This document shows, piece after piece, positions 36,882 to 52,991 of a stretch of DNA of 64,000 bases. A program made the position numbers and the translations under genes. The stretch is from Allobosea robiniae (GTDB lineage: Bacteria > Pseudomonadota > Alphaproteobacteria > Rhizobiales > Beijerinckiaceae), in contig NZ_FNBZ01000008.1 of assembly GCF_900102525.1 (NCBI RefSeq), positions 1 through 64,000 of the forward strand, given 5' to 3'. The notes beneath the pieces are model-generated. The model ran no database searches and was not told the DNA's origin. It saw nothing but the letters and a program-made list of their open reading frames with translations. The stretch's first letter is position 1. Each line of letters starts with the position of its first letter.

Positions 36882-36892
36882 GTAACGGTTAC
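36882..36892. promoter_or_regulatory. GTAAC-N-GTTAC palindrome upstream of DUF1254 operon
   Basis: The perfect inverted repeat GTAACgGTTAC is 110 bases upstream of the DUF1254 start at 36772. Related sites occur before MoxR (43291), the sulfatase (48585), the putative regulator (49483) and a secreted protein (52981). I infer a shared operator; the binding protein is not known. Confidence 0.5.
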
Positions 36893-36942
36893 GAGAGTGA
36901 GCAGCAGGTACCGCTTGCCCTGGCACGCTGCGATAGGCGGTT

Positions 36943-38199
36943 TCACGTCGCTGGGTTGAGCGGGGGCAATGGACCACCCGCGCTTCGATGAGACCGAGGG
37001 GCGTGCCGCCACGCCGAAACAGCACGCGCCAGCTCCCGCCCGCTTCGCCTGTTCCAGCCCCCGCCGCCGAATACCGCGCGCTCGAGTTCCGCCAGGCGTG
37101 GGGCCACGCGCGGGTCTCTGCACAAGGCCTCCCGGTCAGCCGAGGACAGGCGGCCATGCCAGATCGCGAAGGCACGATAGCTTGCGCCGGGTTCTCCGCT
37201 CCTCGCGGCTCTCCGCAACCGCCGGCGTGCGAACCATTCCGAGCCACCAAGCCCGATGACGGCCTGCCGCCAAACCGCGTGGAGGCGCTCGCGCAGCAAC
37301 GCCAGCGAGAGCAGCGCGATCAGGATCAGAGCCAATCCTCCAAGCGCCCACGGCCATATGGCAGGTCTGCCGGAGCGGAAGGGTTGCGCTGCGGCCGCAA
37401 CCGTGACCGTCAGCCCCGGCAGCGTTTCGGTCCTCGCCCTCTTGTCGGCGAGACTCCACCAGGGCTGCGACAGGGCCGGCAGCGCGAAAGTCCCCGGCTG
37501 CTCGAAGACGTAGGTGACCTTGTCGGTGCGAAGCCCGTCCACGCTGCCGCGGTTGCTGCGATCCTCGATCACCGGCGGATCGACATAGACCCGCACACCG
37601 TCCGGCGCCTCGAGGCGGAACTCGGCCATGCCGAGCGCCGGCACGCCCGTCGCCTGACGCCGGATCGACCTGACCACCGCATCTCCGGCGCGGAACGAAC
37701 GCTCCCGAGGCTCCGGCGACCAGCTCTCGCTCGCGCTCACGCTATCGGCGACAAGTACCGGGCCGGACGGGTCGATACCGGGAGGCACGCTGGCGGTGAA
37801 ATGCGTCCTCGTGCCGGTCATCGAACCCGTGGGGTCGCCGTCCCGCGTCAGCAGCGTGACGGCCGGCGCCGGTATCGCAATTTCGCCGCCGCGCCGCGGG
37901 AAGACGACGAATTCGAAGCTCTGGCCGACATAGTCCCGGCCATCGATCCGGTCACGGATGGTGATCGCCTGCGTCTCGAATCTCAGGATTTGGACGCCGG
38001 CCGCTTCCGGCACGCGGACGACCGGCGGGTGCTGCATCTCGCCGGGGAACAGCACCGCGACGGTGAGCCGAACCGGCTGGCCGATGACGATCCCGCTCGC
38101 GGGATCGAGCGTCGTGCGGATGATCGCCGGCTCGGCAGGCGTCTGCGCGAGCGCGATCATCGGGACAGCGAGCAACAGAAGCAGGAGAAGAGCTCTCAC
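36943..38199 (-). CDS. batD: BatD-like membrane protein
   Basis: The 418-residue protein has a signal-like N-terminus (VRALLLLLLLAVPMIALAQ), BatD-type beta-sandwich repeats (IVIGQPVRLTVAVLFPGEMQ; GQSFEFVVFPRRGGEIAIPA), a transmembrane segment near residues 310-330 (WPWALGGLALILIALLSLAL) and a cytoplasmic tail. BatD proteins are the large periplasmic subunits of MoxR/Bat (aerotolerance-type) complexes. The start is GTG 38199, overlapping the stop of the TPR gene; the frame open above this is a shadow of batB/C. It is the last gene of the MoxR operon. Confidence 0.78.
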   Translation of the reverse strand: MRALLLLLLLAVPMIALAQTPAEPAIIRTTLDPASGIVIGQPVRLTVAVLFPGEMQHPPVVRVPEAAGVQILRFETQAITIRDRIDGRDYVGQSFEFVVFPRRGGEIAIPAPAVTLLTRDGDPTGSMTGTRTHFTASVPPGIDPSGPVLVADSVSASESWSPEPRERSFRAGDAVVRSIRRQATGVPALGMAEFRLEAPDGVRVYVDPPVIEDRSNRGSVDGLRTDKVTYVFEQPGTFALPALSQPWWSLADKRARTETLPGLTVTVAAAAQPFRSGRPAIWPWALGGLALILIALLSLALLRERLHAVWRQAVIGLGGSEWFARRRLRRAARSGEPGASYRAFAIWHGRLSSADREALCRDPRVAPRLAELERAVFGGGGWNRRSGRELARAVSAWRHAPRSHRSAGGPLPPLNPAT

Positions 38200-38828
38200 G
38201 GCGCTGCTCCCGGCTGCGTACCGAGCTGATAGGCGAACTTGGCCCGCAGAAAATCCGCCGGGCGGGTCTGCACGCGTTTCAGCCAGAGCGCGCGCACCGC
38301 CTCGTCCGACATCGGGGTCGCCGCCTGGACCGTCGTGTCCTCGCCGCCGGGCTTGGTCTTGTCGAAAACGACCTGATCCGGCCGAGAGTCGGTTTGCCCG
38401 GTCTCGCCCCCCTCCGTCTTGCGGCGCTCGGCGCGGATGCGGGCGATCTCGCGGTTGCGCAGCGCTTCCGGCCAGCCCGGTCGCAGCACGAGCGACCGGT
38501 CGAAGCGCTTCAACGCGTCGTCGTACTGGCCGAGCATCACCAGCGCATTGCCCTGGTCGAAGGCTGCCGCCGCCGTATCGCGCGCCGCGAAGGCTTGGGC
38601 CGCGCCTTTGAAATCTCCGGCCCTGAACAGGGCGACCCCACGCCAGAGCGGGTCGCGAAACGCCTGCGCGGCCTCCACCGTCTGGCCCCGTTGCAGAAGC
38701 AGGCGGCCGCGTTGGTCCGGGCTCAGCCACAGATCGCGAAAGCCCAGCCAGCATCCGGCCGCCAGCAAAGCCAGAGTCGCGAGAAAAGCGAGGGCCGCAT
38801 AGGGCGTAAGACGGTGCGAGCGGATCAT
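38196..38828 (-). CDS. BatC-like TPR protein
   Basis: The 210-residue protein has one N-terminal transmembrane helix (about 10-30) and a short tetratricopeptide region (GDFKGAAQAFAARDTAAAAF; DQGNALVMLGQYDDALKRFD). In Bat operons a TPR protein sits between the two VWA proteins and BatD and is thought to help assemble the complex. The C-terminal 70 residues are charged and probably disordered. Starts and stops overlap by four bases on both sides (38825-38828 and 38196-38199). Confidence 0.78.
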   Translation of the reverse strand: MIRSHRLTPYAALAFLATLALLAAGCWLGFRDLWLSPDQRGRLLLQRGQTVEAAQAFRDPLWRGVALFRAGDFKGAAQAFAARDTAAAAFDQGNALVMLGQYDDALKRFDRSLVLRPGWPEALRNREIARIRAERRKTEGGETGQTDSRPDQVVFDKTKPGGEDTTVQAATPMSDEAVRALWLKRVQTRPADFLRAKFAYQLGTQPGAAP

Positions 38829-39733
38829 GCCGCCCCCCAGCCGCGCCGGAACCAGGGCAGCGCCAGAAGCCCGAGGATCGGGACCAGCCAGTAGCCAGCC
38901 TCGCTCCAGTGATCCCCCTCGCCAGCGATGCCGGAAGCATTGTCGCCACGGTCGAGACGGCGGACGATGGCCGCGACGTCAGACTGGTCGGGCGTGGTTG
39001 GGACCACCATGCCGCCCAAGGTCTTTGCCACCTCGGCGAGCCCGGCCGACTCGGCATCGCGCAGGGCCAGGATCGTCACCGGCGGCGAACCAGCCGGCTG
39101 TGATTCCACGCTGCCCGGTAGGGTCTCATCGGCGAGGAGGAGGATCGCCCCGCCCTGACCGATGCCGGCAAGCGCGCGTCTCGCCAGAGCGAGCGCGCCG
39201 GCAAGATCGTCACCCTGCTTCGGCATGATCTCGGGGGAGAGCGCCTTGGCGAGGTCGAGGATGACGGCGCTGTCCGGCGTCGGCGGCAGGACAAGATGCG
39301 CCGAGCCGGCATAGGCGATCAATGCCGTCGAGGCGCCCTCCCGGGCCGCCAGGATATCGGCCAGCTTCTGCCGGGCGCGGTCGAGCCGCGTCGGAGCAAG
39401 ATCCTCGGTCAGCATGGACGGCGTGACCCTGAGCACGATCGCGACGGTAGGCTTGGCCTCGGCAAAAGGCGAAGGCTCGCGCTGCCAGGCCGGTCCGGCG
39501 ATCGCGGCGGCTGCCAGCGCCATTGCGGCGAACAGCCAGTCGGCGGGGGGGATGCGTACGCGCTGGTCGCCCCCGGTCAGGAGATAGGGAAGCAGTGCCG
39601 GATCGATGACGCTGCGCCATTGCTGTGCGGGATCGGAGCCGCGGCGCGCCAAAAGCCAGAGGGCGGCTGCCGGCACAAGCGCCAACAGCCAAAGCGGGCG
39701 TTCGACATGGAGGGCGGCGAGTGCGTTCATCAT
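38825..39733 (-). CDS. BatB-like VWA-domain protein with degenerate metal site
   Basis: The 302-residue protein has N-terminal transmembrane segments (about 12-30 and 65-85), a von Willebrand A domain (about 92-255) and a C-terminal helix (WLVPILGLLALPWFRRGW). The metal-ion site normally reads D-x-S-x-S, but here the strand is AIVLRVTPSML, so the Asp and first Ser are missing, and it probably does not bind metal. The fold is otherwise intact (GDDLAGALALARRALAG). The degeneracy could mean a structural rather than adhesive role beside the intact BatA paralogue. Start and stop overlap the neighbours. Confidence 0.8.
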   Translation of the reverse strand: MMNALAALHVERPLWLLALVPAAALWLLARRGSDPAQQWRSVIDPALLPYLLTGGDQRVRIPPADWLFAAMALAAAAIAGPAWQREPSPFAEAKPTVAIVLRVTPSMLTEDLAPTRLDRARQKLADILAAREGASTALIAYAGSAHLVLPPTPDSAVILDLAKALSPEIMPKQGDDLAGALALARRALAGIGQGGAILLLADETLPGSVESQPAGSPPVTILALRDAESAGLAEVAKTLGGMVVPTTPDQSDVAAIVRRLDRGDNASGIAGEGDHWSEAGYWLVPILGLLALPWFRRGWGAA

Positions 39734-40752
39734 GGCCCGGCCTCCGTAACCATAGCCGGCTGGGCAGGAAGGCGGCGCATATGCCGGCGCAGGGTGCCGA
39801 CTGCCTGCGCGAGCAAAACCAGCGTGAGCGCTGCGGCGAGCGGCACCCAGTACACATCGCGCCGCGGACGAAAGCTGACGCTGTCGATTCGGCGCGTTTC
39901 GATCGCGTCGAGACGCTGATAGATCTGCGCGAGCCCGGCCCGATCCAGCGCGCGGAAGAAGCCGCCGCCCGTCGTCGTCGCGACCTCCTTCAGCGCGGCC
40001 TCGTCGAGCTTGTCCTCGCCGGCCGCCTGCGGGTCGCCGACCGCCACCGTGTGAATGACGATGCCCTTGTCCTTCGCAACGCGGGCGGCCTCGACTGGCG
40101 GCACCTTGCTCAGCGTGTCGTTGCCATCTGTCAGCGCGATGATGGTCTTCGCCTTGACCGTGCTCCGGGCGAACAGCCCGATGCCGAGGCCGATCGCGTC
40201 GCCGAAAGCCGTGCGCGGCCCGGCCATGCCGACGGCCGTATCACGCAGCATGGCGCGGCACAGATCGAGATCGGTGGTGAACGGCACGAGCGCGAAAGGC
40301 GCGTCGCCGAAGACGACGACGCCGACACGGTCGCCCTTGCGGCGTGACAGGAAATCGTCGAACACCTGCTTCACCGCCGTGAGGCGATCAACGGTCGCCC
40401 CGGATGCATCGACGAAATCGCGCGTATCCATCGATCCCGAGAGGTCGACTAGCAGCAGCAGGTCGCGCGTCGGCAAGTCGCGATGCAAGGGCGGTTCGAT
40501 CCATTGCGGCCGGGCAAGCGCCGCCATGACGAGCAGCCAGACCATCACCAGCACAACGAGGCTGGCGGGCTTGCGCCTCGCGACCACGCCGCCTGAGAAG
40601 GGCTGCCGCCCGCTGAGCCGGACCAGCCTGTCGAAGAACGGCACAGTCAGACCGGTGCGCCGTTCGGCATGCGCAGGCAACCCGAACCAGACAAGCAACG
40701 GCAGCGGGATAAGCAGCGCGATCCAGGGATAGGCGAAGCTCAGCATCGTCAC
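39730..40752 (-). CDS. batA: BatA-like VWA-domain protein
   Basis: The 340-residue protein has N-terminal (about 6-24 and 64-80) and C-terminal (about 312-328) transmembrane helices around a von Willebrand A domain with an intact metal site (Asp103-x-Ser105-x-Ser107 in LLVDLSGSMDT; later TDGND). BatA-type VWA proteins sit at the inner membrane with the domain in the periplasm and work with MoxR ATPases. The Asp-Gly-Ala insert (FVDASGATVDRL) follows the typical pattern. The gene overlaps the DUF4381 gene and batB by four bases. Confidence 0.85.
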   Translation of the reverse strand: MTMLSFAYPWIALLIPLPLLVWFGLPAHAERRTGLTVPFFDRLVRLSGRQPFSGGVVARRKPASLVVLVMVWLLVMAALARPQWIEPPLHRDLPTRDLLLLVDLSGSMDTRDFVDASGATVDRLTAVKQVFDDFLSRRKGDRVGVVVFGDAPFALVPFTTDLDLCRAMLRDTAVGMAGPRTAFGDAIGLGIGLFARSTVKAKTIIALTDGNDTLSKVPPVEAARVAKDKGIVIHTVAVGDPQAAGEDKLDEAALKEVATTTGGGFFRALDRAGLAQIYQRLDAIETRRIDSVSFRPRRDVYWVPLAAALTLVLLAQAVGTLRRHMRRLPAQPAMVTEAGP

Positions 40753-41228
40753 GCTTCCTTCGCCGCTCGCCCGCGCTGACTGCGGAGCCAGTCCTTGGCC
40801 TGTGCGACAAGCGCGCTCGCCCCCGGCGCGCGCCCACCGGGAACGAACATGTCCGTCAGGCCCTCACCCAGATCGGCCGTCTGGATGCCGGCCGGGGTGG
40901 TCTGCCTGATGAACGCCGCCCAGCCTGGCCCGGTCAGCGACGCCACCTCTTCCCGACCGTATGCGACGATCGCCGCGCGCTTCAGGACAGCCGAGACCGC
41001 TTCCGCCGTCTCGGCTCCACCTCCGGCCAATGCATCGATCTCGGCTTCAGCGCCTCGGAGATAGGCATCGGCCCGGTAGCGCCGAAGCGCCCGCCACGCC
41101 ACGACGGCCAGCATTGCCCCAACCGTCACGCCGACGATCCAGACACCGGCTGCGGGAGGCCAGAACGATATCGGCTCCGGCAAGGCCAGGTCGGCCATGT
41201 TGGCGAGATCGCCGGGGTCGCTGCTCAT
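40749..41228 (-). CDS. DUF4381 membrane protein of the Bat operon
   Basis: The 159-residue protein has a short N-terminal region with PEPISFWPPAAGVWIVGV leading into a transmembrane helix (about 28-48), then a cytoplasmic domain with the family's GREEVASLTGPGWAAFIRQT motif. DUF4381 proteins occur only in MoxR-DUF58-VWA operons. The ATG at 41228 is used because it overlaps the DUF58 stop by four bases; the frame is open up to 41375 but that overlaps the upstream gene. Confidence 0.82.
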   Translation of the reverse strand: MSSDPGDLANMADLALPEPISFWPPAAGVWIVGVTVGAMLAVVAWRALRRYRADAYLRGAEAEIDALAGGGAETAEAVSAVLKRAAIVAYGREEVASLTGPGWAAFIRQTTPAGIQTADLGEGLTDMFVPGGRAPGASALVAQAKDWLRSQRGRAAKEA

Positions 41229-42223
41229 GGCGCTCTCCCGCCGAGGCGGCTCAATCTCTGAGCCTGGCGCCGGCCGATCAGCGCGCGCAATTGCGTGGCG
41301 ACGTCGCGTTCGGTCGAGATCGGCAGGACCGGAATGGCTCGATTGCGCGACAGCGCCGCGAGTCGTGCACGCCATTGCACGCGCTCTTCGCTGAACCGGG
41401 ACCGCAGAGTGGCAGATGATGCATCGACCTCGAGCTGCGCGGATCCGGAGCTGAAAATCGCGGGCCCGATATCCGGCAGGTCCTGCTCAAGCGGATCATG
41501 GATGAAGACGGCCAGAACGTCGTTATGGGCACACAGGCGAGTCACCAGACGATGGGTGTCGTCATCCTCGCCGGCGGCGTCGGAGATCAGGCAGATCAAT
41601 CCGTCATGTGCGACCATCCGGGCCGCGGCGGCGAGCGCTTCGTTCAGCCGCGCGGCTCCGCGCCCGCTCGGCGAGGGCGGTGTCAGAGCAGCGTTCTGGC
41701 GGGCGATCTCCGCGAGGACGCGGACCACGCCGTGGTCGCGGGTCTGCGGGCGGACGGTGACGATGCCGTCATCACTGAAGACGACGGCGCCGACACGATC
41801 TCCCAGCGAGGTCACGCGCCAGGCTGCAAGCGCCGCGACCTCCGCGGCGGCGACCGATTTCATCATCCGGCGGCTGCCGAAGAACATCGTGCTGCGTTGG
41901 TCGACGAGCAGCAGCACTGGCCGGTCGCGCTCCTCCGAATAGACCCGGACATGTGGGCTGCCGAGCCGCGCCGTCGCGAGCCAGTCGATGGTGCGGGTAT
42001 CGTCGCCCTCGAAATAGTGCCGCAACTCCTCGAAATTCAGCCCGCGCCCGCGCAGGCGCGAAGCATGGCGGCCGGCGAGCAGGCTGTGCACCGGCTGGCG
42101 GGGCTGGAAGCTGAAGCCATGGGCGCGGTGCTTGAGGCGCAGCAGTTCGTCGAGGGTGACGAAGGCGCGTGCGGATGCCGCTGGCTTCGTCCCCACTCCT
42201 GACCGTTCCCGCATCAGTGCCAT
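41225..42223 (-). CDS. DUF58 domain protein
   Basis: The 332-residue protein contains the DUF58 core (LRGRGLNFEELRHYFEGDDT RTIDWLATARLG; VYSEERDRPVLLLVDQRSTM) and a VWA-like fold behind it (VAAAEVAALAAWRVTSLGDR VGAVVFSDDG). DUF58 proteins accompany MoxR ATPases everywhere and probably recognise the substrate or position the VWA proteins. The N-terminus is soluble. It lies nine bases after moxR and overlaps the DUF4381 gene. Confidence 0.87.
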   Translation of the reverse strand: MALMRERSGVGTKPAASARAFVTLDELLRLKHRAHGFSFQPRQPVHSLLAGRHASRLRGRGLNFEELRHYFEGDDTRTIDWLATARLGSPHVRVYSEERDRPVLLLVDQRSTMFFGSRRMMKSVAAAEVAALAAWRVTSLGDRVGAVVFSDDGIVTVRPQTRDHGVVRVLAEIARQNAALTPPSPSGRGAARLNEALAAAARMVAHDGLICLISDAAGEDDDTHRLVTRLCAHNDVLAVFIHDPLEQDLPDIGPAIFSSGSAQLEVDASSATLRSRFSEERVQWRARLAALSRNRAIPVLPISTERDVATQLRALIGRRQAQRLSRLGGRAP

Positions 42224-42232: not shown

Positions 42233-43216
42233 CTAGATCGCGACGGCGACCTGCTTCACCACCTCGTCCAGCACCGCATCCGCATTCACGCCGTCGGCAC
42301 CGGCCTCATAGGCAAGCGAGACGCGATGCCTGAGGCAATCATGCACGACCGACTGGACGTCCTCGGGCGTGACGTAATCGCGTCCCTGCAGCCAGGCATG
42401 GGTCCGCGAGCAGCGGTCGAGCGCGAGCGAGCCGCGCGGGCTCGCGCCGACCGCGATCCAGCTTTTGAGATGCTCGCCGAATTCGGCCGGCCGCCGCGTC
42501 GCGGCGATGAGCGCGACCATGTAGGTCTCGACGACATCCTTCGTCGCGACCCGGTCGATTTCCGCCCTGGCCCGCAGAACGGCCTCCTGCGGGATCTTCG
42601 CAGGAGCTGGCGCCGGACTGCCGGAGGCGGCCGCGTTCTCGGAGCGGACCAGCCGCATCACCTTCACTTCGTCGGCGTCGGATGGATAATCGATCCGGAT
42701 ATGCATCAGGAAGCGGTCCATCTGCGCTTCCGGGAGCGGATAGGTGCCTTCCTGCTCGATCGGGTTCTGGGTCGCCAGGACCATGAAGAGCGGCGGCAGG
42801 TCATAGCGCTTGCCGGCGACGGTGACGTGCCGCTCCTCCATCGCCTCGAGCAGGGCCGACTGGACCTTGGGCGGGGCGCGGTTGATCTCGTCGGCCAAGA
42901 TGAGGTTGCCGAAGACGGGGCCCTTGCGGAATTCGAACTGGCCGTCGGGGCGTAGGATCTCGCCGCCGGTCACGTCGGAGGGCAGCAGGTCCGGCGTGAA
43001 CTGGATGCGGCTGAAATCGGCTTCGAGATTCTTCGACAGGCTCTTGATCGCCCGGGTCTTGGCGAGGCCGGGCAAGCCTTCCAGCAGGACGTTGCCGTCG
43101 GCGAGCAGCGCGATGACGATGCGCTCGACCACCTTTTCCTGGCCGATGATATCCTGGTTGATCCGGTTCTGGAGTTCCCGGACGGCATCGCGTGCGCTCG
43201 GTCCGGCTCCATCCAT
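42233..43216 (-). CDS. moxR: MoxR-family AAA+ ATPase
   Basis: The 327-residue AAA+ chaperone has Walker A GLPGLAKT (residues 47-54), Walker B LILADEINRAPP (Asp111-Glu112), sensor 1 LATQNPIEQEGTYPLPEAQM and a C-terminal lid (ASPRGSLALDRCSRTHAWLQ). MoxR ATPases with DUF58 and VWA partners assist maturation or metal loading of envelope proteins. It leads the operon moxR-DUF58-DUF4381-batA-batB-TPR-batD. A GTTACg-GTTACg direct repeat is 75 bases upstream. The sulfatase-activating gene ends only 104 bases further up on the same strand, so read-through is possible. Confidence 0.92.
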   Translation of the reverse strand: MDGAGPSARDAVRELQNRINQDIIGQEKVVERIVIALLADGNVLLEGLPGLAKTRAIKSLSKNLEADFSRIQFTPDLLPSDVTGGEILRPDGQFEFRKGPVFGNLILADEINRAPPKVQSALLEAMEERHVTVAGKRYDLPPLFMVLATQNPIEQEGTYPLPEAQMDRFLMHIRIDYPSDADEVKVMRLVRSENAAASGSPAPAPAKIPQEAVLRARAEIDRVATKDVVETYMVALIAATRRPAEFGEHLKSWIAVGASPRGSLALDRCSRTHAWLQGRDYVTPEDVQSVVHDCLRHRVSLAYEAGADGVNADAVLDEVVKQVAVAI

Positions 43217-43290
43217 CGTCCCATTCCCGAAAACGCCGACATCGGCGTCGATCCGGAGATTTGGGCGGCAGGCCCGGCGAAGTCAGCCCT

Positions 43291-43301
43291 GTTACGGTTA
43301 C
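43291..43301. promoter_or_regulatory. GTTAC repeat upstream of moxR
   Basis: GTTACgGTTAC is a direct repeat 75 bases upstream of the moxR start. It shares the half-site of the inverted GTAAC-N-GTTAC sites before the neighbouring operons, although the first half is in the opposite orientation. Inferred operator. Confidence 0.4.
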
Positions 43302-43319: not shown

Positions 43320-44279
43320 TCAGCCGCGCTCGCGCAGGACGCAGCGGAAGCCGACATGGCTGGTCGAGGTGTCGACCGGTTCGGCATGGCGCGCCGCCGG
43401 GCGATAGCGCCGGCAATAGCTCGGGGCGCAGAGATGCGAGCCGCCCTTCAGGACCTTGCGGGCAATGCGGATCGCCGGCTGACGCGGATCGTAGCTTTCG
43501 GCTTCCGGGCCGCCACGGGGATTCTGCGGCACGCAGCAGGCTTTCGGCGCATCGGCCTGATGGCGCACGGACCAGAAATCGGCGGTCCATTCCCAGACAT
43601 TGCCGATCATATCGTGGAGCCCGTAGCCGTTGGGCGGAAAGGCCCGGACCGGCGAGGTGCGCGCCCAGCCGTCCTCCCTGGTATTCTCGTGCGGGAAGCT
43701 GCCCTGCCAGGTATTGGCCATGTGGCGGCCATCCGGCATGAACTCGTCGCCCCAGGCGAACTCGCTGTCCTCGCGCCCGCCCCAGGCCGCGAATTCCCAT
43801 TCGGCTTCGGTCGGCAGCGCCTTGCCGGCCCACGCGGCATAGGCCTCGGCATCGCGATAGGCGACGTGGACGACGGGATGATCGTCCAGGCCCTTGATCG
43901 AGGAGCCGGCGCCATAGGGCTTGCGCCAGGTCGCACCGAACCTGAACGTCCACCACTGCGCCCAGTCGTGCAGGGCGACCGGATGCCTCGGCGGGTCGAA
44001 CATCAGCGACCCCGCCCGCAGCATGTGGGGCAAGGCGCCGGGATAATCCCTGGGATCGGGGGCGAGCTCGGCGAAGGTGACATGGCCGGTCGCTTCGACG
44101 AAGCTGCGGAACTGGCTGTTGGTCACCGGCGTCGCGTCGATCCAGAAGCCGTCGACGTTGGCGCGATGGCTCGGCGCCTCCTCGGCATAGTGCCGGTCGG
44201 AGCCCATGCGGAAAGTGCCGCCTTGGATGCGGACCATGCCGTCCGTAAGCAAACGCGCCTCTGCGATCGCGGCGTTCAT
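43320..44279 (-). CDS. formylglycine-generating enzyme (sulfatase activator)
   Basis: The 319-residue FGE/SUMF1-family protein has the C-terminal active-site signature GGSHLCAPSYCRRYRPAARH with Cys284 and Cys289, the copper-binding pair of true FGE. It has MVRIQGGTFRMGSDRH near the start and GNVWEWTADFW around residue 226. FGE oxidises the Cys of the C-x-P/A-x-R motif in sulfatases to formylglycine, the catalytic residue. Its target is probably the arylsulfatase of the same operon (46880-48475). There is no signal peptide, so it should act in the cytoplasm before export. Confidence 0.92.
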   Translation of the reverse strand: MNAAIAEARLLTDGMVRIQGGTFRMGSDRHYAEEAPSHRANVDGFWIDATPVTNSQFRSFVEATGHVTFAELAPDPRDYPGALPHMLRAGSLMFDPPRHPVALHDWAQWWTFRFGATWRKPYGAGSSIKGLDDHPVVHVAYRDAEAYAAWAGKALPTEAEWEFAAWGGREDSEFAWGDEFMPDGRHMANTWQGSFPHENTREDGWARTSPVRAFPPNGYGLHDMIGNVWEWTADFWSVRHQADAPKACCVPQNPRGGPEAESYDPRQPAIRIARKVLKGGSHLCAPSYCRRYRPAARHAEPVDTSTSHVGFRCVLRERG

Positions 44280-45330: not shown

Positions 45331-46800
45331 TCAGTTCGCTTTCAGCACCGGGGGCGGGGTCCATGCTCCCTGCATCACCTCCGCCTTCGGCCAATAGGCG
45401 CGGACGTAAAGCGAGAAGTCGCCTTTCGGGGCCGGGAGCCAGTTGGCGCGCTGTGCGGGATCGCTGGGAGCTTCGGACTGAACGTAGATGGTCAACGATC
45501 CGTCAGTGTTGAGCTTCAGGTCCTTGTTCTTCGTGCCGACCGAGAAGCGGTTGATCGGGTTGGCGACGAAGAAGTGGTGCTCGTTGTAGATCGACAGGGA
45601 CCAGAACCCGTTCACCGGCGGAGTGCCCCCCTTCGGGAAGGTGACGGTATAGCGGCTCGCGGCATTGAGGCGGCCACCCGCATTGTCGAGGTCCTGGTAG
45701 AAATACTTGGTCTCGTTCGGCGAGTTCACCATGATGTTCGACTTCGCCACTGCCGTTCGGGTAAAATAATCGGTGCCGAAAGCGGACTCGTTCGAAATCG
45801 TCGACCAGTTATGCGGGAGCTGCTGGCCGTAATTGCGAAACTGGAAGAGCGGCGTCACCAACCTCTCATCGGCCTCGGCGGCACCTTCGGTCATCGCCCG
45901 CTTCAGCTTGGGATCGGTCTTCGCTGCGGTGAGCACGGCGAGCACCTGTGCATAGCGAGCTTCCTCTCCCGGAAGCGGCGGTGCGTCGGCCAGGACGAGG
46001 GGCAATTCGTCGACGAATTTCTCCGGAAACACCCAGCGGGTCTCTGTTTCGCTCGGAGGCGGAGGCGGCACGACCGGCAGCTTCGTCCAGTTCATCGTCT
46101 TCACCGTCCCGTCGAACTCGGCGAGCGGGTACATCATGATGCCCGGCAGGACGGACTGGATCGCCCGCTTGTCCTCGGGCGTGTCGTCCTGGAAGATTCG
46201 GGGGGCCATCAGCCCGGTATTGCTCGGGGATCGAAACACCTTGGTGATCCCGGGCGGGACATCCCCGTTCCAGTTGGGCCCTACCAGCAGATAGAAACCC
46301 GGCAACGTGCCATACATCTTGCCGAGCTGGACGAAGCTGTCGGTACGCAGATCGACGGTCTGATAGACCCAGAAGCGATCCCCGAAATCGGGTACCTGGA
46401 TGACGACCGGGGAGATGTCGAGCGCGAGCGAACCGATCCCGTAGACGACATCCTGGTTCGGGCAGGCGATGGAGCGCTCCTCCGGTTCGACATAGTCCGT
46501 CAGCATGGCGAGTCGATTGAGCGGAGCCTGCATCAACGGACCGGAGCGAGCGGTCTCCTTTACCTGGGCGAAATGCAGGCGACGGTTGAAGATATTGACC
46601 ATCGGCCAGGTCCAGAAATAGGCGTCGCGACCGACGAGACGCGCATATGCCTCGGTGATCTTCACGCGCGTATCGGGGCCGGGCGGCATGGCGCGGCCCC
46701 AGCCGGGCGAAGCCTGCAAGGCGGGTCCCTGAGCCAGGGCCGGCATGCCGATCAAAAGCGCGACGGCGCCAAGCAACGCACCAGAATGAATGGCCCGCAT
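45331..46800 (-). CDS. secreted DUF1254/DUF1214 protein
   Basis: The 489-residue protein has a signal peptide (MRAIHSGALLGAVALLIGMPALA), a DUF1254 part (RDAYFWTWPMVNIFNRRLHF; ACPNQDVVYGIGSLALDISP) and a DUF1214 part (VNGFWSLSIYNEHHFFVANP; FSLYVRAYWPKAEVMQGAW). It is the third family member here, more distant from the pair at 34.3-36.8 kb. Its place between sulfatase and HAD genes suggests a link to the sulfatase pathway, although the family's activity is unknown. A hairpin lies between the sulfatase stop and its start. Confidence 0.87.
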   Translation of the reverse strand: MRAIHSGALLGAVALLIGMPALAQGPALQASPGWGRAMPPGPDTRVKITEAYARLVGRDAYFWTWPMVNIFNRRLHFAQVKETARSGPLMQAPLNRLAMLTDYVEPEERSIACPNQDVVYGIGSLALDISPVVIQVPDFGDRFWVYQTVDLRTDSFVQLGKMYGTLPGFYLLVGPNWNGDVPPGITKVFRSPSNTGLMAPRIFQDDTPEDKRAIQSVLPGIMMYPLAEFDGTVKTMNWTKLPVVPPPPPSETETRWVFPEKFVDELPLVLADAPPLPGEEARYAQVLAVLTAAKTDPKLKRAMTEGAAEADERLVTPLFQFRNYGQQLPHNWSTISNESAFGTDYFTRTAVAKSNIMVNSPNETKYFYQDLDNAGGRLNAASRYTVTFPKGGTPPVNGFWSLSIYNEHHFFVANPINRFSVGTKNKDLKLNTDGSLTIYVQSEAPSDPAQRANWLPAPKGDFSLYVRAYWPKAEVMQGAWTPPPVLKAN

Positions 46801-46879: not shown

Positions 46880-48475
46880 CTATTTCGAGGTCCGGGCGGC
46901 GGCCTGATCGAGGTTCTTCATCAGGGCGTCCACCATCTGGTCGACGCTGAAGCTCGCCGGCCGCTGGCTCGGCGGGTAGTCCTTGAAGGTGCCCAGGAAG
47001 GGAGCGACCTTGTAGACGCCGTACTGGATCAGATAGGCGTTCCGGGCGAGCCAGTCGTAATACTGGTCGGAGACGACGTCGGCCCGTTCCATCGGATCCA
47101 TGCGCAGATTGAAGACCTTCGGGGCGCGCAGGCAGGTGAAGGGATTGGCCCAGACCTCGAAACCGCCGGGCTTGCGCTGTTCGCAGAACACGACCTTCCA
47201 GTTATCGTAACGATAGGCGACGAGATTGCCGTCGTCGTTGAAGTAGAAGAACTCGTTGCGGGCCGATTTCGGCTGCTGACCGGTGAGGTAGGGCAGCTGG
47301 TTGTAGCCGTCGAGATGGACCTTGGCCTGCTTGCTGCCGAGGCTCGTGCCCTTCTGCAGCTTGTCCTTGATCTCGCCGTCGCCCGCGGCAGCGACAAGGG
47401 TCGGGAACCAGTCCAGGCCGGAGACCATCTCGTTCGAGATTTCGCCCGCCTTGATCTTGCCGGGCCAGCGGATCAACGCCGGCACACGGAAGGCACCTTC
47501 CCAGTTCGTGTCCTTCTCGGAGCGGAACTGCGTCGTCGCGGCATCCGGCCAGGACCACTGGTTAGGGCCGTTATCGGTGGCGTAGACGACGATGGTATTG
47601 TTGGCGATCCCGAGATCGTCGAGCGCCTTTAGCAGCTTGCCGACATCGCGATCGTGTTCGACCATGCCGTCGGCGTAGTCGTTCCCGGGCATGCCGCTGA
47701 TACCCTTGTTGGCTTCGCGGATATGGGTGAACACATGCATGCGCGTGGTGTTCATCCAGGTGAAGAACGGCTTGTTGGCTTTCACCTGACGCTGCATGAA
47801 GTCGATCGCGCCGGCCGTGGTCTCGTCGTCGACCGTTTCCATGCGCTTGCGGGTGAGCGGGCCGGTATCCTCGATCTTGCCGTCGGCGGAGGATTTGAGC
47901 ACGCCGCGCGGCGAGCCCGACTTGACGAAATTCGTGTCGTTCTTGGGATAGTAGGGGCCTTCCGGCTCCTCTTCGGCATTGAGGTGGTAGAGATTGCCGA
48001 AGAACTCGTCGAAGCCATGCCGCGTCGGCAAGTATTCGTCGCGGTCGCCGAGATGGTTCTTGCCGAACTGCCCGGTGGCATAGCCGAGCGGCTTCAAGGC
48101 CTCCGCAATCGTCACGTCGCGATCCTGCAGGCCGACTGTCGCTCCGGGGATGCCGACCTTGCAGAGACCCGTGCGCAGGCAGACCTGCCCCGTGATGAAG
48201 GTCGAGCGCCCGGCCGTGCAGCTGTTCTCCGCATAGTAATCGGTGAACATCATGCCTTCCTTGGCGATGCGGTCGATATTCGGCGTCTTGTAGCCGACCA
48301 GGCCGTGCGAATAGGCGCTGATGTTGGATTGGCCGATATCGTCGCCGAAGATGACGAGGATGTTCGGTCTGGCCGAACTTGGCGGGCTTGGAGCGGGTTG
48401 CGCTTGCGCCGGCAGCGCCGACAGGCCCAATCCGACCACAAGGCCGACCGCGGCAAGGAATTTATGGCGTCCCAT
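46880..48475 (-). CDS. secreted arylsulfatase (formylglycine type)
   Basis: The 531-residue protein has a signal peptide (MGRHKFLAAVGLVVGLGLSALPAQA) and sulfatase motifs: metal ligands in ILVIFGDDIGQSN, the modified Cys86 in SCTAGRSTFITG (C-T-A-G-R, a C-x-A-x-R variant of C-x-P-x-R), GKNHLGD and TDNGPNQWSWPD. Sulfate-ester hydrolysis depends on formylglycine made by FGE, encoded 2.6 kb downstream in the same operon. The substrate is unknown. The operon order is sulfatase, DUF1254 protein, HAD phosphatase, FGE. A GTAACtGTATC site is 110 bases upstream. Confidence 0.92.
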   Translation of the reverse strand: MGRHKFLAAVGLVVGLGLSALPAQAQPAPSPPSSARPNILVIFGDDIGQSNISAYSHGLVGYKTPNIDRIAKEGMMFTDYYAENSCTAGRSTFITGQVCLRTGLCKVGIPGATVGLQDRDVTIAEALKPLGYATGQFGKNHLGDRDEYLPTRHGFDEFFGNLYHLNAEEEPEGPYYPKNDTNFVKSGSPRGVLKSSADGKIEDTGPLTRKRMETVDDETTAGAIDFMQRQVKANKPFFTWMNTTRMHVFTHIREANKGISGMPGNDYADGMVEHDRDVGKLLKALDDLGIANNTIVVYATDNGPNQWSWPDAATTQFRSEKDTNWEGAFRVPALIRWPGKIKAGEISNEMVSGLDWFPTLVAAAGDGEIKDKLQKGTSLGSKQAKVHLDGYNQLPYLTGQQPKSARNEFFYFNDDGNLVAYRYDNWKVVFCEQRKPGGFEVWANPFTCLRAPKVFNLRMDPMERADVVSDQYYDWLARNAYLIQYGVYKVAPFLGTFKDYPPSQRPASFSVDQMVDALMKNLDQAAARTSK

Positions 48476-48584
48476 GAAACACTCCCGGTTGCGGATCCGT
48501 CGCCGGGGATTGCGTCTCTGCGAGAGCGCAAGCCTGGGTGCGCGACGCCGGAAAGTCGCATGGAGGTATCGCGCGCTTAAGGCC

Positions 48585-48595
48585 GTAACTGTATC
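48585..48595. promoter_or_regulatory. GTAAC-type site upstream of the sulfatase operon
   Basis: GTAACtGTATC lies 110 bases upstream of the sulfatase start. It shares the 12 bases GGCCGTAACTGT with the site at 52981, and the second half-site has two mismatches to GTTAC. Inferred operator of the shared regulon. Confidence 0.5.
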
Positions 48596-48614: not shown

Positions 48615-49433
48615 TCAATGGGAGGCGATCACGGCCGAGATGGATTGCGCCGCGGTCTCAGCAAGATCGTCGATCAGCTCGAAGCAGGGCGTCGCCTTCG
48701 CGACAAAATCCCGGAAGTCGGAAGCCAGCACCTCGCCGTTGCGCAGATCGCTGAAACGCCAGGAATAGCGGCGCCGCTCGGCCAGCGGACGCACGGCGAT
48801 GTCGAGGGAATAGGTCTCGCCGGGATGAGCGAAAAGTGCGTTGATCGAGCCGGTCGCCGCGCTGCGCTCTACCGATGGAACGACGAGCGTCTTGAAGCGG
48901 GCCTTTCGCAACAGGGGAAGCAGGGCATCGGTGAAAAGCTCACCACGCAAAGCAACTTCGGGGTCCGCCTGATCCGAGTGATCATGGATCACCACCGCCG
49001 CTAGCGTCCCGTCCACAATCTCGGCGACCATGCCTTCAAGGAGGCAATCGCGCCCATCTCGTCCGGGCAATCCGGCTGCCCAGCCGAATGTCGGCACATA
49101 ACTGCCGCGCGGTATCGTGATCCTGATGCGATCGCCGCTTCCCGCACCATCATAATAGGCGTTCAGCGCCGAACGCAGGCGCGTCGCCTCGATGCGAACG
49201 ATGGGATCGACGGTCGGGTCAAAGCTGTCATCCCGACCGAAGACGTCGACGCCGATCGAGTAGGCTTTGATCCGGTCGGAACGCCCACCGATCGTCTGAT
49301 TCACGACGAAGCTCAGGAAGCGCCTATTTCTTTCCGAGATTCTGAACGAACCGCTGGCTACCAATGCTTCGAGAGCCGAAAGTACTTCTCCAGGCGAGGG
49401 CTCCTCACCCTCGGTCAACACCTTTCCGTCCAT
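48615..49433 (-). CDS. putative regulator with winged-helix-like N-terminal domain
   Basis: The 272-residue soluble protein has an N-terminal part (FRISERNRRFLSFVVNQTIG; KAYSIGVDVFGRDDSFDPTV; RIEATRLRSALNAYYDG) that matches the module found at the front of many TolB-type and adenylate-cyclase-like proteins in Rhizobiales. It is often annotated as a CadC-like or uncharacterised regulator. The remainder (about 130-272) resembles the TolB-like FlgO/TolB_N fold (LLRKARFKTLVVPS). A weak GTAAC site is 50 bases upstream. It precedes the sulfatase operon on the same strand, so it may regulate it, but the DNA-binding role is inferred. Confidence 0.55.
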   Translation of the reverse strand: MDGKVLTEGEEPSPGEVLSALEALVASGSFRISERNRRFLSFVVNQTIGGRSDRIKAYSIGVDVFGRDDSFDPTVDPIVRIEATRLRSALNAYYDGAGSGDRIRITIPRGSYVPTFGWAAGLPGRDGRDCLLEGMVAEIVDGTLAAVVIHDHSDQADPEVALRGELFTDALLPLLRKARFKTLVVPSVERSAATGSINALFAHPGETYSLDIAVRPLAERRRYSWRFSDLRNGEVLASDFRDFVAKATPCFELIDDLAETAAQSISAVIASH

Positions 49434-49482
49434 TGCTCCGCCTCCAAAGCCTGGATCGAAAAACTATCTCTCATCAATCGTT

Positions 49483-49493
49483 GTAACAGTGAC
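49483..49493. promoter_or_regulatory. GTAAC-type site upstream of the putative regulator
   Basis: GTAACaGTGAC (one mismatch to GTAAC-N-GTTAC) lies 50 bases upstream of the start at 49433. If the protein at 48615-49433 binds it, the gene would be self-controlled. Inference only. Confidence 0.4.
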
Positions 49494-49554: not shown

Positions 49555-49809
49555 TTAGGAAATCCTCTCCAGAATATCTTGTTCTGTCGCGGAAGCGAGC
49601 GCGTTGTATTCCTCCGCGCGTTCCCGGCCAACCACCGAAGGTGATTTTGCCCAATAGGCCGCGGCCTCCCAGGCGGCCTCGTAGGCTTCGCACAGTTCCG
49701 CCAGGCGGATGTCTTGGCCGTATTTCTCACGCAGCGCGGCGCGCCGATCCGGCCAGCGGAGCATCAGGCGGGCAAGCCCGCGTTTTTGCGCCTGTTCCAT
49801 ATGAGACAT
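49555..49809 (-). CDS. small hypothetical protein
   Basis: The 84-residue frame from ATG 49809 (MSHMEQAQKRGLARLMLRWP) continues with RREALREKYG-like basic and acidic helices (KYGQDIRLAELCEAYEAAWE) and ends SATEQDILERIS. It looks like a helical soluble protein. A second start at 49830 is possible. I recognise no family. It is on the same strand as the regulator gene and lies 121 bases upstream of that gene's start. Confidence 0.5.
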   Translation of the reverse strand: MSHMEQAQKRGLARLMLRWPDRRAALREKYGQDIRLAELCEAYEAAWEAAAYWAKSPSVVGRERAEEYNALASATEQDILERIS

Positions 49810-49982: not shown

Positions 49983-50990
49983 ATGAAGCGATTCAGGACC
50001 GCGCTTCTTGGGGCCACGGTCGCCCTGTGTGGCAGCCTGACCCATAGCCAACTTGCAGCGACGGAAGGCGGCGCAAGCCTGTTTCTCCCGGGATTGCACG
50101 GCCCCGGAGCCGGCATGCTGCCGCCACCCGGCTTCTATTTCGAGAATGACTTCTATTCTTATTCTGGACGGCTTTCGGCAGGAACCCAGACGCAGTTCGG
50201 CGGCGCCGTACTAGCCAATGTTAAAGTCGAGGCGCGGGCCAATTTCATGACCCCGACCTGGGTCACTCCTTTCCAGATATTCGGCGGCAACCTCGCTTTT
50301 GCCGTCTCCATCCCATTCGGCACGCCGCGGATCAGCGCTGGTGCCGTGATTGCGGCGCCCCGTCTTGGCCGCTCCTTCGGGCTCAGCAGCCGCGATGCCA
50401 CCTTCAATCTCGGCGATCCCATCGTCTCCAGCTTTATCGGCTGGCATGCCGGCAATTTCCACTGGCAGGTCGGCGGCTCGCTGAGCATTCCGGCCGGCGC
50501 CTACCAGGAGGGCGAGCTCTCCAATCTGGCGTTCAATCGCTGGATCGGCGACGTTTTCGCGGCAGGGACCTGGCTCGACCCCAAAATCGGCCTCGACATC
50601 TCCGCTGCCGTGGGTTTCGAGATCAACGGCAAGAATAAAGACACCGACTACCGCAGCGGCAATGCCGTGCATGCCGACCTCGCGATCACGCAGTATCTCA
50701 GCAAGGAATTCTCGATCGGCGTGATCGCCTCGCATTACCAGCAGGTCAGCGGCGATGGCGGCGGCGGGGCCTCGCTCGGCTCCTACAAGGGCCGTGTCAC
50801 CGCAGTCGGCGGCTCGATCGGCTATAATTTCAGCGTCGCGGGCACTCCGGTCGCCGCACATCTCAAGGTGCTACGCGAGGTCAGCGTTGAGAATCGGCCC
50901 CAGGGAACGATCGCCCTGATCAGTCTCGCCTTCCCATTGGGACATGTTCCAGCCCCCGCTGCTCCGTCTCCGACGGTCGTCAAGCGCTGA
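49983..50990 (+). CDS. outer-membrane protein, MetA-pathway-of-phenol-degradation family
   Basis: The 335-residue protein has a signal peptide (MKRFRTALLGATVALCGSLT), then alternating beta strands with aromatic belts (FYFENDFYSYSGRLSAGTQT; FQIFGGNLAFAVSIPFGT; VGFEINGKNKDTDYRSGNAV HADLAITQYL). This fits the SphX/MetA family of beta-barrel proteins (Phenol_MetA_deg), thought to move hydrophobic substrates into the cell. There is no adjacent degradation pathway, so the substrate is open. The ATG at 49983 has a GGGAGG ribosome site upstream. Confidence 0.82.
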   Translation: MKRFRTALLGATVALCGSLTHSQLAATEGGASLFLPGLHGPGAGMLPPPGFYFENDFYSYSGRLSAGTQTQFGGAVLANVKVEARANFMTPTWVTPFQIFGGNLAFAVSIPFGTPRISAGAVIAAPRLGRSFGLSSRDATFNLGDPIVSSFIGWHAGNFHWQVGGSLSIPAGAYQEGELSNLAFNRWIGDVFAAGTWLDPKIGLDISAAVGFEINGKNKDTDYRSGNAVHADLAITQYLSKEFSIGVIASHYQQVSGDGGGGASLGSYKGRVTAVGGSIGYNFSVAGTPVAAHLKVLREVSVENRPQGTIALISLAFPLGHVPAPAAPSPTVVKR

Positions 50991-51167
50991 TAAATCAGTA
51001 CACACGTCCGCAATAGCGTTCCGGCTGAAAACGCCCCGGGCAACGCAGGCTGCGGCATCACCCCGCCGGCATCGTCAGCCTCGCCCAGCGTGGTAATCCA
51101 CGGCGCCGGCCTCCCCCTCGAACCAAGACGAGAGGAAAGCCACCGTCGAGGCGCTGGGGACGAACGT

Positions 51168-51749: not shown

Positions 51750-51815
51750 GAATACCTCCGTCTTGAATCGGCCTATTGCAGGCCCGCCTGGTTTCTCTCG
51801 CAATGACCAGTCTTC

Positions 51816-52391
51816 TCAGGGTGGGCAGACGTCCCAGAAGCCCTGCGTTCGCTGCGGATTTGTGTAGAACCAGCAATAGCCGGGTGCCGGCGGTTGCGAA
51901 CTGACATAGGCTCGGGCCGCCGCGGCCGTTGCGAAGCCGATTGCCGCCCCCGACACGACCGCCAGGCCCGGATGCCACCAATAGCCGGCTGGGCGAACCC
52001 AGGGACGAACCGGAGCAGGCACAGGCCGATAGCCGGGGCGGACAACGGCCCCACGACCCGCAACGACATTCCCTCGTGGCCCGCGCGCGACATAACCCCT
52101 GCCGGCCACAGCACCGCGCGGCCCGCGAGCGACATAGCCGCGCCGGGCGACTACGCCGCCTCTCGGCCCGACGGCGACGCCCCGTTCAGCAAAACCCCGG
52201 CGGTATTGGGTCGGCTCGACGAACTCGGGCGCGACATTCCCCAATCTCGATCCGATCGGCGTGAATGCCTGTGCGTCAAACGAAACGAGCGAGATCGGCA
52301 ACAACGTCACGGCCATGGCCTTCGATACAAGGCCGACGATCGACGCTGCCCGAAGGGAACGGGCCGCGTTCGCACTCAAGAACGACATCAT
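51816..52391 (-). CDS. secreted Gly/Arg-repeat protein
   Basis: The 191-residue protein has a hydrophobic N-terminus (AARSLRAASIVGLVSKAMAVTLLPISLVS) and a repeat region with RRGYVARGPRG, GRGYVARGPRG and related copies (about residues 70-115), then a hydrophobic stretch (VVSGAAIGFATAAAARAYVS) and a C-terminal domain with two Cys (PPAPGYCWFYTNPQRTQGFW DVCPP). The pattern is that of small surface or periplasmic proteins in Rhizobiales. The ATG at 52391 follows AAGGAGATGG. The frame upstream of it is a shadow. Confidence 0.72.
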   Translation of the reverse strand: MMSFLSANAARSLRAASIVGLVSKAMAVTLLPISLVSFDAQAFTPIGSRLGNVAPEFVEPTQYRRGFAERGVAVGPRGGVVARRGYVARGPRGAVAGRGYVARGPRGNVVAGRGAVVRPGYRPVPAPVRPWVRPAGYWWHPGLAVVSGAAIGFATAAAARAYVSSQPPAPGYCWFYTNPQRTQGFWDVCPP

Positions 52392-52428
52392 CCATCTCCT
52401 TCTGTCCTGATCCATCTCATCAACGAGG

Positions 52429-52449
52429 AAAAAGCAGAGCCAGGCTCTG
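52429..52449 (-). terminator. intrinsic terminator
   Basis: On the minus strand CAGAGC (52444-52449) pairs with GCTCTG (52435-52440) around three bases, followed by C and five T (52429-52433). It closes the gene ending at 52466. Confidence 0.7.
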
Positions 52450-52465
52450 TGCTGGCGGGTGGCTG

Positions 52466-52876
52466 TTATTTGTCGCACCGGTGATAGCTGGTCTCGACCT
52501 CCGGAAACTCCGGGTCGAAGCGCAGGACATCGCCGTCGGGCTTGAAGCGGACGGACACGCTCGACGTCTCGAAGATAACTGCAGTCTTGCAGCCGAGCAG
52601 AACGGTCAACACGTCCCCCTTCTGCTTCGAGGAGATCACATCGCAGGTGGCGTTCGCACCGCGAATATGCTTGCCGGTCGCAATAAATCCCGACCAACCT
52701 TCGGCTGAGTGCTTGAAGACGAGTTGCCCGTTGCGTTTGGCGAAGACCTGGTCGCAGCTCGCCGCACTCGTTGCCCACGCGCCTTGCAGACGCTCGACCG
52801 CCAGGCTCGGCTGCCCGATGGCCGTGGCAGCGACCGCGAGAAGCGCCAAGGCGACAGGTTTCGTACCTCGTTTCAT
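52466..52876 (-). CDS. secreted hypothetical protein
   Basis: The 136-residue protein begins at ATG 52876 (MKRGTKPVALALLAVAATAIG), a clear signal peptide. The mature part has four Cys (SCDQVF, ATCDVIS, LLGCKTAV, YHRCDK), probably two disulfides, and beta strands (FKHSAEGWSGFIATGKHI). There is no recognised family. A perfect GTAACtGTTAC site lies 105 bases upstream and a terminator just after its stop, so it is a single-gene unit with the shared regulatory site. Confidence 0.7.
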   Translation of the reverse strand: MKRGTKPVALALLAVAATAIGQPSLAVERLQGAWATSAASCDQVFAKRNGQLVFKHSAEGWSGFIATGKHIRGANATCDVISSKQKGDVLTVLLGCKTAVIFETSSVSVRFKPDGDVLRFDPEFPEVETSYHRCDK

Positions 52877-52980
52877 GCTTTCATCCACTGAAGTGTCGGC
52901 CCGATCGACCTTGCCCGCATGTCGCGGCAGGCAATATCTTCGAACGAACTCCGCAGAGTCGGAAGCAGTTTGGCGGCCGT

Positions 52981-52991
52981 AACTGTTACAC
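52981..52991. promoter_or_regulatory. GTAAC-N-GTTAC palindrome upstream of the secreted protein
   Basis: The perfect inverted repeat GTAACtGTTAC lies 105 bases upstream of the start at 52876, the same distance as the sites before the sulfatase (110) and the DUF1254 operon (110). It shares GGCCGTAACTGT with the sulfatase site. Between 52992 and 53281 there is otherwise nothing identifiable. Confidence 0.55.

What the first reader, a model, noticed from the sequence alone, without database searches (positions are those of the whole stretch)
36882..52991. A repeated GTAAC-N-GTTAC site links the sulfatase, MoxR/Bat and DUF1254 operons
Perfect inverted repeats GTAAC-N-GTTAC are at 36882 and 52981, with near-matches at 48585 (GTAACtGTATC) and 49483 (GTAACaGTGAC) and a direct repeat GTTACgGTTAC at 43291. 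All lie upstream of minus-strand operons, and three are at the same distance from the start codon (105-110 bases). The sites at 48585 and 52981 share GGCCGTAACTGT. This looks like one regulon controlled by an unknown regulator, perhaps the protein at 48615-49433.
Basis: partly seen in the sequence, partly recalled or inferred. Interest (0 to 1): 0.75.

Follow-up and report, generated by a model that had tools for sequence, protein, structure and literature searches.

The report
Sulfatase regulon: operator and its regulator
A rare 11-letter mirror-image DNA word sits in front of a set of sulfatase-related operons in Bosea-type bacteria, and evolutionary evidence indicates that it is the docking site of an uncharacterised regulator protein encoded in their midst.

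Summary
GTAAC-N-GTTAC occurs exactly at 36882 and 52979; 43291 and 49483 have one mismatch, 48585 two. In the 5.28-Mb genome the exact word occurs five times; the other three copies lie inside genes. In 67 same-genus genomes it recurs ahead of the same genes (sulfatase, MoxR/Bat operon, DUF1254, the regulator's own operon). All 15 genomes carrying the 48615-49433 protein, or a shortened relative, at the cluster have it there; 1 of the other 52 does. Sixteen loci with genes of the same families but without the protein beside them lack it. Three genomes of a second genus with the protein, found afterwards, have it too. The protein is a soluble 272-residue putative regulator: an N-terminal domain of winged-helix-like predicted topology without Pfam or PDB match, and a TolB/CsgG-like C-terminal domain. 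Two residues of the predicted recognition helix separate motif-linked from other family members (18 of 18 versus 0 of 55). The site lies 4 bp upstream of -35/-10-like elements with 17-bp spacing, so I propose an autoregulated activator. DNA binding, direction of regulation and signal are untested.

The parts
36882..36892 (.). operator, exact GTAACGGTTAC, 109 bp upstream of the DUF1254 gene 35438-36772
43291..43301 (.). operator, 1 mismatch (GTTACGGTTAC), 74 bp upstream of MoxR; 12 orthologous MoxR genes have the exact form 44-77 bp upstream
48585..48595 (.). decayed operator, 2 mismatches (GTAACTGTATC), 109 bp upstream of the sulfatase; exact in 11 orthologous promoters
49483..49493 (.). operator, 1 mismatch (GTAACAGTGAC), 49 bp upstream of the regulator gene
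52979..52989 (.). operator, exact GTAACTGTTAC, upstream of the small, probably exported protein gene 52466-52876
48615..49433 (-). proposed regulator (272 aa): N-terminal DNA-binding-like domain plus TolB/CsgG-like C-terminal domain
49074..49409 (-). N-terminal domain of the regulator (residues 9-120), predicted wHTH-like topology, no Pfam/NCBIfam match
49149..49202 (-). predicted recognition helix (residues 78-95) with the residues T84 and S88 that go with the motif
48618..49001 (-). C-terminal TolB_N/FlgO/CsgG-like domain (about residues 145-272)
48552..48580 (-). -35-like (48575-48580) and -10-like (48552-48557) elements of the sulfatase promoter, 17-bp spacing
36849..36877 (-). -35-like (36872-36877) and -10-like (36849-36854) elements of the DUF1254 promoter
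43258..43286 (-). -35-like (43281-43286) and -10-like (43258-43263) elements of the MoxR promoter
46880..48475 (-). sulfatase (PF00884) with N-terminal hydrophobic stretch; CTAGR near the place of the usual active-site motif
45331..46800 (-). DUF1254/DUF1214 protein
44319..45314 (-). HAD-like hydrolase
43320..44279 (-). formylglycine-generating-enzyme-like protein (PF03781)
42233..43216 (-). MoxR-type AAA ATPase, first gene of the MoxR/DUF58/DUF4381/VWA/VWA/BatD operon
36943..42223 (-). rest of the Bat operon: DUF58, DUF4381, two VWA proteins, a 210-aa protein, BatD-like (this last name is recalled; Pfam match weak, DUF7939)
33094..36772 (-). DUF1254 gene, second DUF1254/1214 gene, 86-aa hydrophobic protein, HlyD-like protein
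49555..49800 (-). 81-aa small protein ahead of the regulator; in L069, L070, L072 and L077 its orthologue follows an exact site by 66-76 bp
49983..50990 (+). divergent Phenol_MetA_deg-like gene (PF13557); in several relatives it lies across the regulator operon's site
52466..52876 (-). small protein with N-terminal hydrophobic stretch (called u52466), preceded by an exact site here and in L067 and L071

Best explanation
GTAAC-N-GTTAC (often C-N-GTAAC-N-GTTAC-N-G) is the operator of the 48615-49433 protein, a soluble one-component regulator. Its N-terminal domain (about residues 9-120; helices 14-26, 34-48, 57-64, 78-95, then a beta hairpin) reads the operator with the helix at 78-95, residues 84 and 88 helping to set specificity. 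Its C-terminal TolB/CsgG-like domain probably dimerises or senses a signal. Bound about 45 bp upstream of the inferred transcription start, next to a poor -35 element, it most likely activates the sulfatase/HAD/FGE, MoxR/Bat, DUF1254/HlyD and small-protein operons, and its own operon. Shown by computation: the conserved site, its link to the gene, the domain layout, the promoter geometry. Inferred: direct binding, activation, autoregulation. Unknown: the signal.
For: Rarity: 5 exact places in 5.28 Mb, 3 of them in genes. Genus: 63 exact places in 67 genomes, 52 called intergenic; 46 of these 52 lie within 250 bp upstream of a sulfatase, MoxR, DUF1254, HlyD-operon, MetA-like, regulator-operon or u52466 gene. 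Enumeration of all 5-mer palindromes with gaps 0-8 in intergenic DNA: GTAAC-1 is first, in 17 of 18 regulator-bearing loci (38 copies) and 0 of 16 loci without the regulator; the next palindrome that does not overlap it is in 5 of 18. Genome tally 15 of 15 versus 1 of 52, Fisher 4.6e-14, kinship ignored. MoxR orthologues at 85% identity or more: site in 15 of 15 with the regulator (13 exact, 2 with one mismatch), 0 of 2 without. Out of genus: 3 of 3 genomes with the protein have sites (0-1 mm) beside its gene. In G024 the MoxR site is on another contig than the regulator, as a trans-acting factor allows. Recognition helix: the 18 motif-linked proteins have [TN] at 84 and [SAT] at 88; 0 of 55 other domain sequences read have both. 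G011 and G022 have short proteins (203 and 141 aa) with little besides the N-domain and keep the sites. Promoter geometry: -35-like at +15..+20 and -10-like at +38..+43 from the site start. C-domain: PelC/TolB/CsgG fold hits and a 95.4% hhalign match to TolB-like segments of long relatives. No other gene family is in more than 15 of the 18 loci, and none that I left unlabelled is in more than 7.
Against: No binding or expression data. G058 has 3 exact intergenic sites, two of them at a sulfatase and a DUF1254 gene, but no close regulator; its four N-domain proteins lack the T84/S88 signature. The orthologous sulfatase promoters of G012 and G050 have no site at 1 mismatch or less. The N-domain has no PDB fold match (best E 0.83) and no significant profile match to OmpR/PhoB winged helices (at least 5 of 60 column shuffles score higher), so its DNA-binding nature rests on topology and correlation. 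The signature could be a clade marker: 16 of the 18 form one supported clade. Most of the 18 loci were fetched around the regulator gene, so its constancy there is partly by choice. Only 2-3 genomes test absence at close orthologues. Half-site centres 6 bp apart are tight for two ordinary winged helices (recalled).
Confidence: 0.8

Rival explanations
1. The regulon is real, but the operator is bound by another transcription factor encoded elsewhere (for instance a TetR- or GntR-type protein); the 48615-49433 protein is a co-regulated passenger or a co-regulator.
For: G058 keeps sites without a close copy of the protein. An 11-bp 5-1-5 palindrome is unusual for OmpR-like winged helices (recalled). 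Unlabelled neighbours were not scanned for regulator domains.
Against: At the 18 loci no other gene family reaches more than 15, and no unlabelled one more than 7. Sites are missing in G021 and G062, which lack the protein but keep MoxR, sulfatase and FGE genes at 70-88% identity. Recognition-helix residues go with the site.
Confidence: 0.13
2. The protein binds the site but as a repressor that blocks RNA polymerase, relieved by a signal sensed by the C-terminal domain.
For: The operator lies next to the -35-like element, and a divergent, probably autoregulated promoter is common for repressors (recalled).
Against: The centre near -45 with weak -35 sequences (TTAAGC, CTGACT) is the usual place of an activator touching sigma (layout; comparison recalled).
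Confidence: 0.25
3. The sites are chance or a selfish repeat without regulatory meaning.
For: Matches with up to two mismatches in the window are not far above the chance number (10 against 4.81).
Against: 0.00 exact matches expected in the window; 17 of 18 regulator-bearing loci versus 0 of 16 others; similar distances to the same genes across species; the flanks differ between target classes, so it is not a copied repeat.
Confidence: 0.02

Closest known systems
OmpR/PhoB-type winged helix (Pfam PF00486 Trans_reg_C)
   Same: Order of helices followed by a beta hairpin; hhalign puts 'VFGR..FDP..DPIVRIEA.RLR..L' on the family's 'vwg....drtvdvhi.rLR.K.' in a sensible register.
   Different: No Pfam hit, insignificant profile score, an extra N-terminal helix; the operator is a 5-1-5 inverted repeat rather than the direct repeats usual for that family (recalled).
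CadC/ToxR-like membrane one-component regulators (N-terminal DNA-binding domain, membrane helix, periplasmic sensor; layout recalled)
   Same: Many N-domain relatives are about 540-640 aa with N-domain, hydrophobic segment, TolB/FlgO-like region and TPRs, a CadC-like layout.
   Different: The window protein and its motif-linked relatives are short (203 and 141 aa in G011 and G022, otherwise about 270 aa) and without a clear membrane segment.
TolB N-terminal / FlgO / CsgG / PelC fold
   Same: C-terminal half matches these by fold (best E 3.0e-4) and the TolB-like part of relatives by profile (95.4%).
   Different: Those are envelope proteins (recalled); here the fold is on a protein without evident export signal, joined to a DNA-binding-like domain.

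Membership tests
PF00486 Trans_reg_C (OmpR/PhoB wHTH) | Pfam profile match | tested here: not met
   0 families for P0001 at E 0.001; no Trans_reg_C for 9 relatives at E 0.1
PF00486 Trans_reg_C (OmpR/PhoB wHTH) | profile-profile homology | tested here: inconclusive
   hhalign probability 1.5%, score 15.8; at least 5 of 60 column-shuffled profiles scored higher
PF00486 Trans_reg_C (OmpR/PhoB wHTH) | fold match to solved winged helices | tested here: inconclusive
   Foldseek on the N-domain model (pLDDT 89.6, pTM 0.81): no match at E 0.001, best 0.83 to PerR; the second aligner was not available
CadC/ToxR-like membrane regulator | transmembrane helix after the DNA-binding domain | tested here: not met
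   highest 19-residue hydropathy of the 18 motif-linked proteins 0.71-1.71, of the 41 long relatives 1.17-3.0; the ranges overlap
TolB_N/CsgG-like fold (C-domain) | fold and profile similarity | tested here: met
transcriptional regulator of this regulon | specific binding to the operator | not testable with these tools
   only co-occurrence and residue correlation

The most novel reading that the evidence does not exclude
The N-terminal domain defines a DNA-binding domain family that Pfam and NCBIfam do not model, with matches in 63 of 67 genomes of the genus (many on long proteins with a hydrophobic segment, TolB-like region and TPRs) and in other Alphaproteobacteria. This regulon supplies its first operator, a 5-1-5 inverted repeat read by helix 78-95, with positions 84 and 88 as part of a specificity code and the VFGRDDSFD loop (invariant in the 15-sequence alignment) as a candidate contact to RNA polymerase.
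Probability: 0.6. Interest if true: 0.75.

Novelty: new variant of a known kind. Interest (0 to 1): 0.6.

Why it matters
It pairs an orphan protein family, not modelled as regulators in Pfam or NCBIfam and seen across several alphaproteobacterial families, with a concrete DNA target. That turns a set of 'TPR' or hypothetical proteins into testable transcription factors. It also ties sulfatases and an FGE-like enzyme to MoxR/Bat AAA+ operons and DUF1254 proteins by common regulation; what these do together is not known to me.

Tried and rejected
(1) Looked for a GTAAC-like or other repeated palindrome at three distant clusters that carry a long relative (L028, L034, L035): no exact palindrome with 5-7-bp arms holding two or more A/T occurs twice in the intergenic DNA of any one locus, so the motif of those subfamilies is unknown. 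(2) Tested OmpR/PhoB homology of the N-domain three times; searches had 1 and 5 template sequences and were too thin, one search was inconclusive. (3) The first fold search was dominated by the C-domain; the N-domain was then modelled alone. (4) RNA hairpin reading rejected: arms of five with a one-base loop cannot fold as such (reasoning, not run). (5) The three exact sites outside the window were candidates for further regulon members; all lie in coding genes. (6) The histidine kinase/OmpR-type pair at 55398-57397 was considered as regulator; among the 17 other site-bearing loci such labels appear only in L071 and L150. (7) Papers: searches gave listings and abstract openings only; no paper was opened. 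Of the 20 papers holding the exact word none concerns such a regulon by title and abstract opening; one is about E. coli GalR sites (PMC5110547) and was not read.

Limits and dropped rows. One search was cut ('more matches are not listed') and one search lists only part of its 397 genomes. A second sulfatase copy in G024 (C9, 70%, one stop inside, no exact site near it) was left out of the sulfatase count. G011 and G022 were counted as 'with regulator' after inspection; counted as 'without', the tally is 13 of 13 versus 3 of 54. The 16 'without' loci include distant FGE clusters, and 6 of them (L135-L138, L145, L147) are in genomes that do carry the regulator elsewhere; in G037 (L137) it is next door. 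The other 10 are from 7 genomes without it. In one search the motif-linked group was picked by the signature itself; that it equals the 18 site-bearing loci was checked by eye. Not every N-domain hit was read: 73 distinct domain sequences were. The gene finder is home-made and missed the G022 protein.
Full report
OBSERVATION. 43291 and 49483 have one mismatch and 48585 two. None is expected by chance in exact form (0.00), while matches with up to two mismatches are less striking (10 seen, 4.81 expected, 1 of 100 shuffles reaching 10). In the whole genome there are 5 exact places: two here, two in paralogous glycosyltransferase genes 4.5 kb apart, one in a shikimate dehydrogenase gene. At up to one mismatch there are 20 places, four of them in this 16 kb.

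SETTING. The sites precede, on the minus strand: a DUF1254 gene, the MoxR/DUF58/DUF4381/VWA/VWA/BatD-like operon, a sulfatase followed by DUF1254, HAD and FGE-like genes, the 272-aa protein at 48615-49433, and a small protein. The closest named relatives of the 272-aa protein are Bosea and Rhizobiales isolates. Contig G012:C41 has the same length as a Bosea sp. WAO contig (771,710), so I call the genus Bosea.

CONSERVATION. In 67 same-genus genomes the full-length protein is in 13 (matches of 200 bits or more). I mapped all 63 exact sites of those genomes on fetched stretches with a home-made gene finder. 52 were called intergenic and 11 in genes, one of the 11 being at the first codons of what looks like an over-extended call, L078:10738. 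Of the 52, 46 lie within 250 bp upstream of a member of the families named above; the exceptions are L068:1227, L082:6482, L089, L092, L100, and L081:10906, whose label came from its own locus. For 11 close sulfatase orthologues with an exact site the gap to the start is 98-110 bp in 10 and 139 in one (G010); for 12 MoxR orthologues it is 44-77 bp. Unlinked members appear in single species: sulfatase paralogues (L082, L083, L085, L097) and DUF1254 genes (L093, L101, L102).

DOES THE SITE FOLLOW THE PROTEIN? Two more genomes, G011 and G022, carry shorter proteins with the same N-domain beside the cluster (203 and 141 aa). Counting these, 15 of 15 genomes with the protein have target-associated exact sites, against 1 of 52 others (G058); Fisher 4.6e-14, not corrected for kinship. 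MoxR orthologues at 85% or more exist in 17 genomes: the 15 with the protein have the site (13 exact; in G050 ahead of a sulfatase-MoxR operon; G000 and G022 with one mismatch), while G021 and G062, without it, have none. For the sulfatase at 70% or more: 12 of 15 at one mismatch or less with the protein (G000 has two mismatches; G012 and G050 none), 0 of 3 without (G003, G021, G062) (P = 0.025). The own genome's second cluster, with FGE and MetA-like genes 84% and 77% identical, has no protein beside it and no site at 2 mismatches or less. An enumeration of 5-mer palindromes gave GTAAC-1 in 17 of 18 protein-bearing loci and 0 of 16 loci without it; 6 of those 16 are in genomes that have the protein elsewhere. 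The 18th protein-bearing locus (G404) has three one-mismatch sites.

OUT-OF-GENUS CHECK. A profile search of 397 family genomes found the protein in three genomes of another genus. All three have sites of 0-1 mismatch next to the gene. In G346 and G381 there are also sites between the regulator and the HlyD/DUF1254 genes, and in G346 ahead of MoxR. In G404 one site is 112 bp upstream of the small gene before the regulator, one is 162 bp upstream of an unlabelled gene, and one is in a convergent gap; its only exact site is inside a gene.

OTHER CANDIDATES. Grouping all called proteins of the 18 loci, the regulator is in 17 (the gene finder missed the G022 one), then sulfatase 15, FGE 14, HAD 14, MetA-like 13, MoxR 12, DUF58 12; no group that I had left unlabelled is in more than 7. 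As most loci were chosen around the regulator, its own count is not evidence; the lack of a second constant regulator is, as far as labels go.

THE PROTEIN. No Pfam or NCBIfam family matches. The N-domain models well alone (pLDDT 89.6, pTM 0.81): helices 14-26, 34-48, 57-64, 78-95 and strands 103-106 and 115-118, the order of a winged helix. Yet Foldseek finds no solved relative (best E 0.83), and comparison with 20 Trans_reg_C rows is inconclusive. The C-domain matches PelC/TolB/CsgG structures (best E 3.0e-4) and the TolB-like part of long relatives (95.4%, E 1.8e-8). Those relatives carry a hydrophobic stretch and TPRs. So the window protein looks like a soluble, cut-down cousin of CadC-like receptors. 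Of 73 distinct N-domain sequences read, the 18 at site-bearing loci have [TN] at position 84 and [SAT] at 88; none of the other 55 has both. In 61 stretches with other N-domain hits (322,520 bases, some overlapping) there is no exact site and two with one mismatch. Sixteen of the 18 form one supported clade; G011 and G022 sit in a wider clade with non-signature proteins, so independent origin of the signature is not shown.

MECHANISM. Aligned on the operator (first base 0), the sulfatase sites have TTAAgc and the MoxR sites cTGACt at +15 to +20, and -10-like sequences (often preceded by TG in the sulfatase class) at +38 to +43, a 17-bp spacing. This puts the operator centre at about -45, where class II activators sit (recalled), and the weak -35 sequences suit an activator. 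The small gene plus regulator operon has an exact site 66-76 bp upstream in four other species, which suggests autoregulation. Binding, direction and signal are inferred or unknown.

WHAT IS NEW. Searches gave no paper, by title and abstract opening, on this motif, this domain as a regulator, or this gene set; the library holds open-licence papers only and no paper was opened. I file it as a new variant of a known kind: an ordinary one-component regulon with a DNA-binding domain not modelled in the libraries searched.

Noticed in passing
L086 (G002:C15:9000-28900): Array of six N-domain proteins (five of about 590-608 aa close together and one of 316 aa further on) in one genome, suggesting local expansion of this family.
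   Followed up: partly
L135 (G000:C12:32000-51900): The same genome has a second sulfatase/FGE/HAD/HlyD/MetA-like cluster without the operator and without the regulator.
   Followed up: partly
L081 and L093 (G058): Three exact operator sites at a sulfatase, an 829-aa gene and a DUF1254 gene in a genome without a close regulator: recent loss or another binder.
   Followed up: partly
L079:18594-19205 (G011): N-domain protein whose tail looks like the coiled start of an IS3-type transposase subunit (impression from recall only; no Pfam match).
   Followed up: no
window 46880-48475: The sulfatase has CTAGR where the usual motif is C/S-x-P-x-R (recalled), although an FGE-like gene sits in the same cluster.
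   Followed up: no
window 55398-57397: Histidine kinase and OmpR-type response regulator pair next to the cluster.
   Followed up: no
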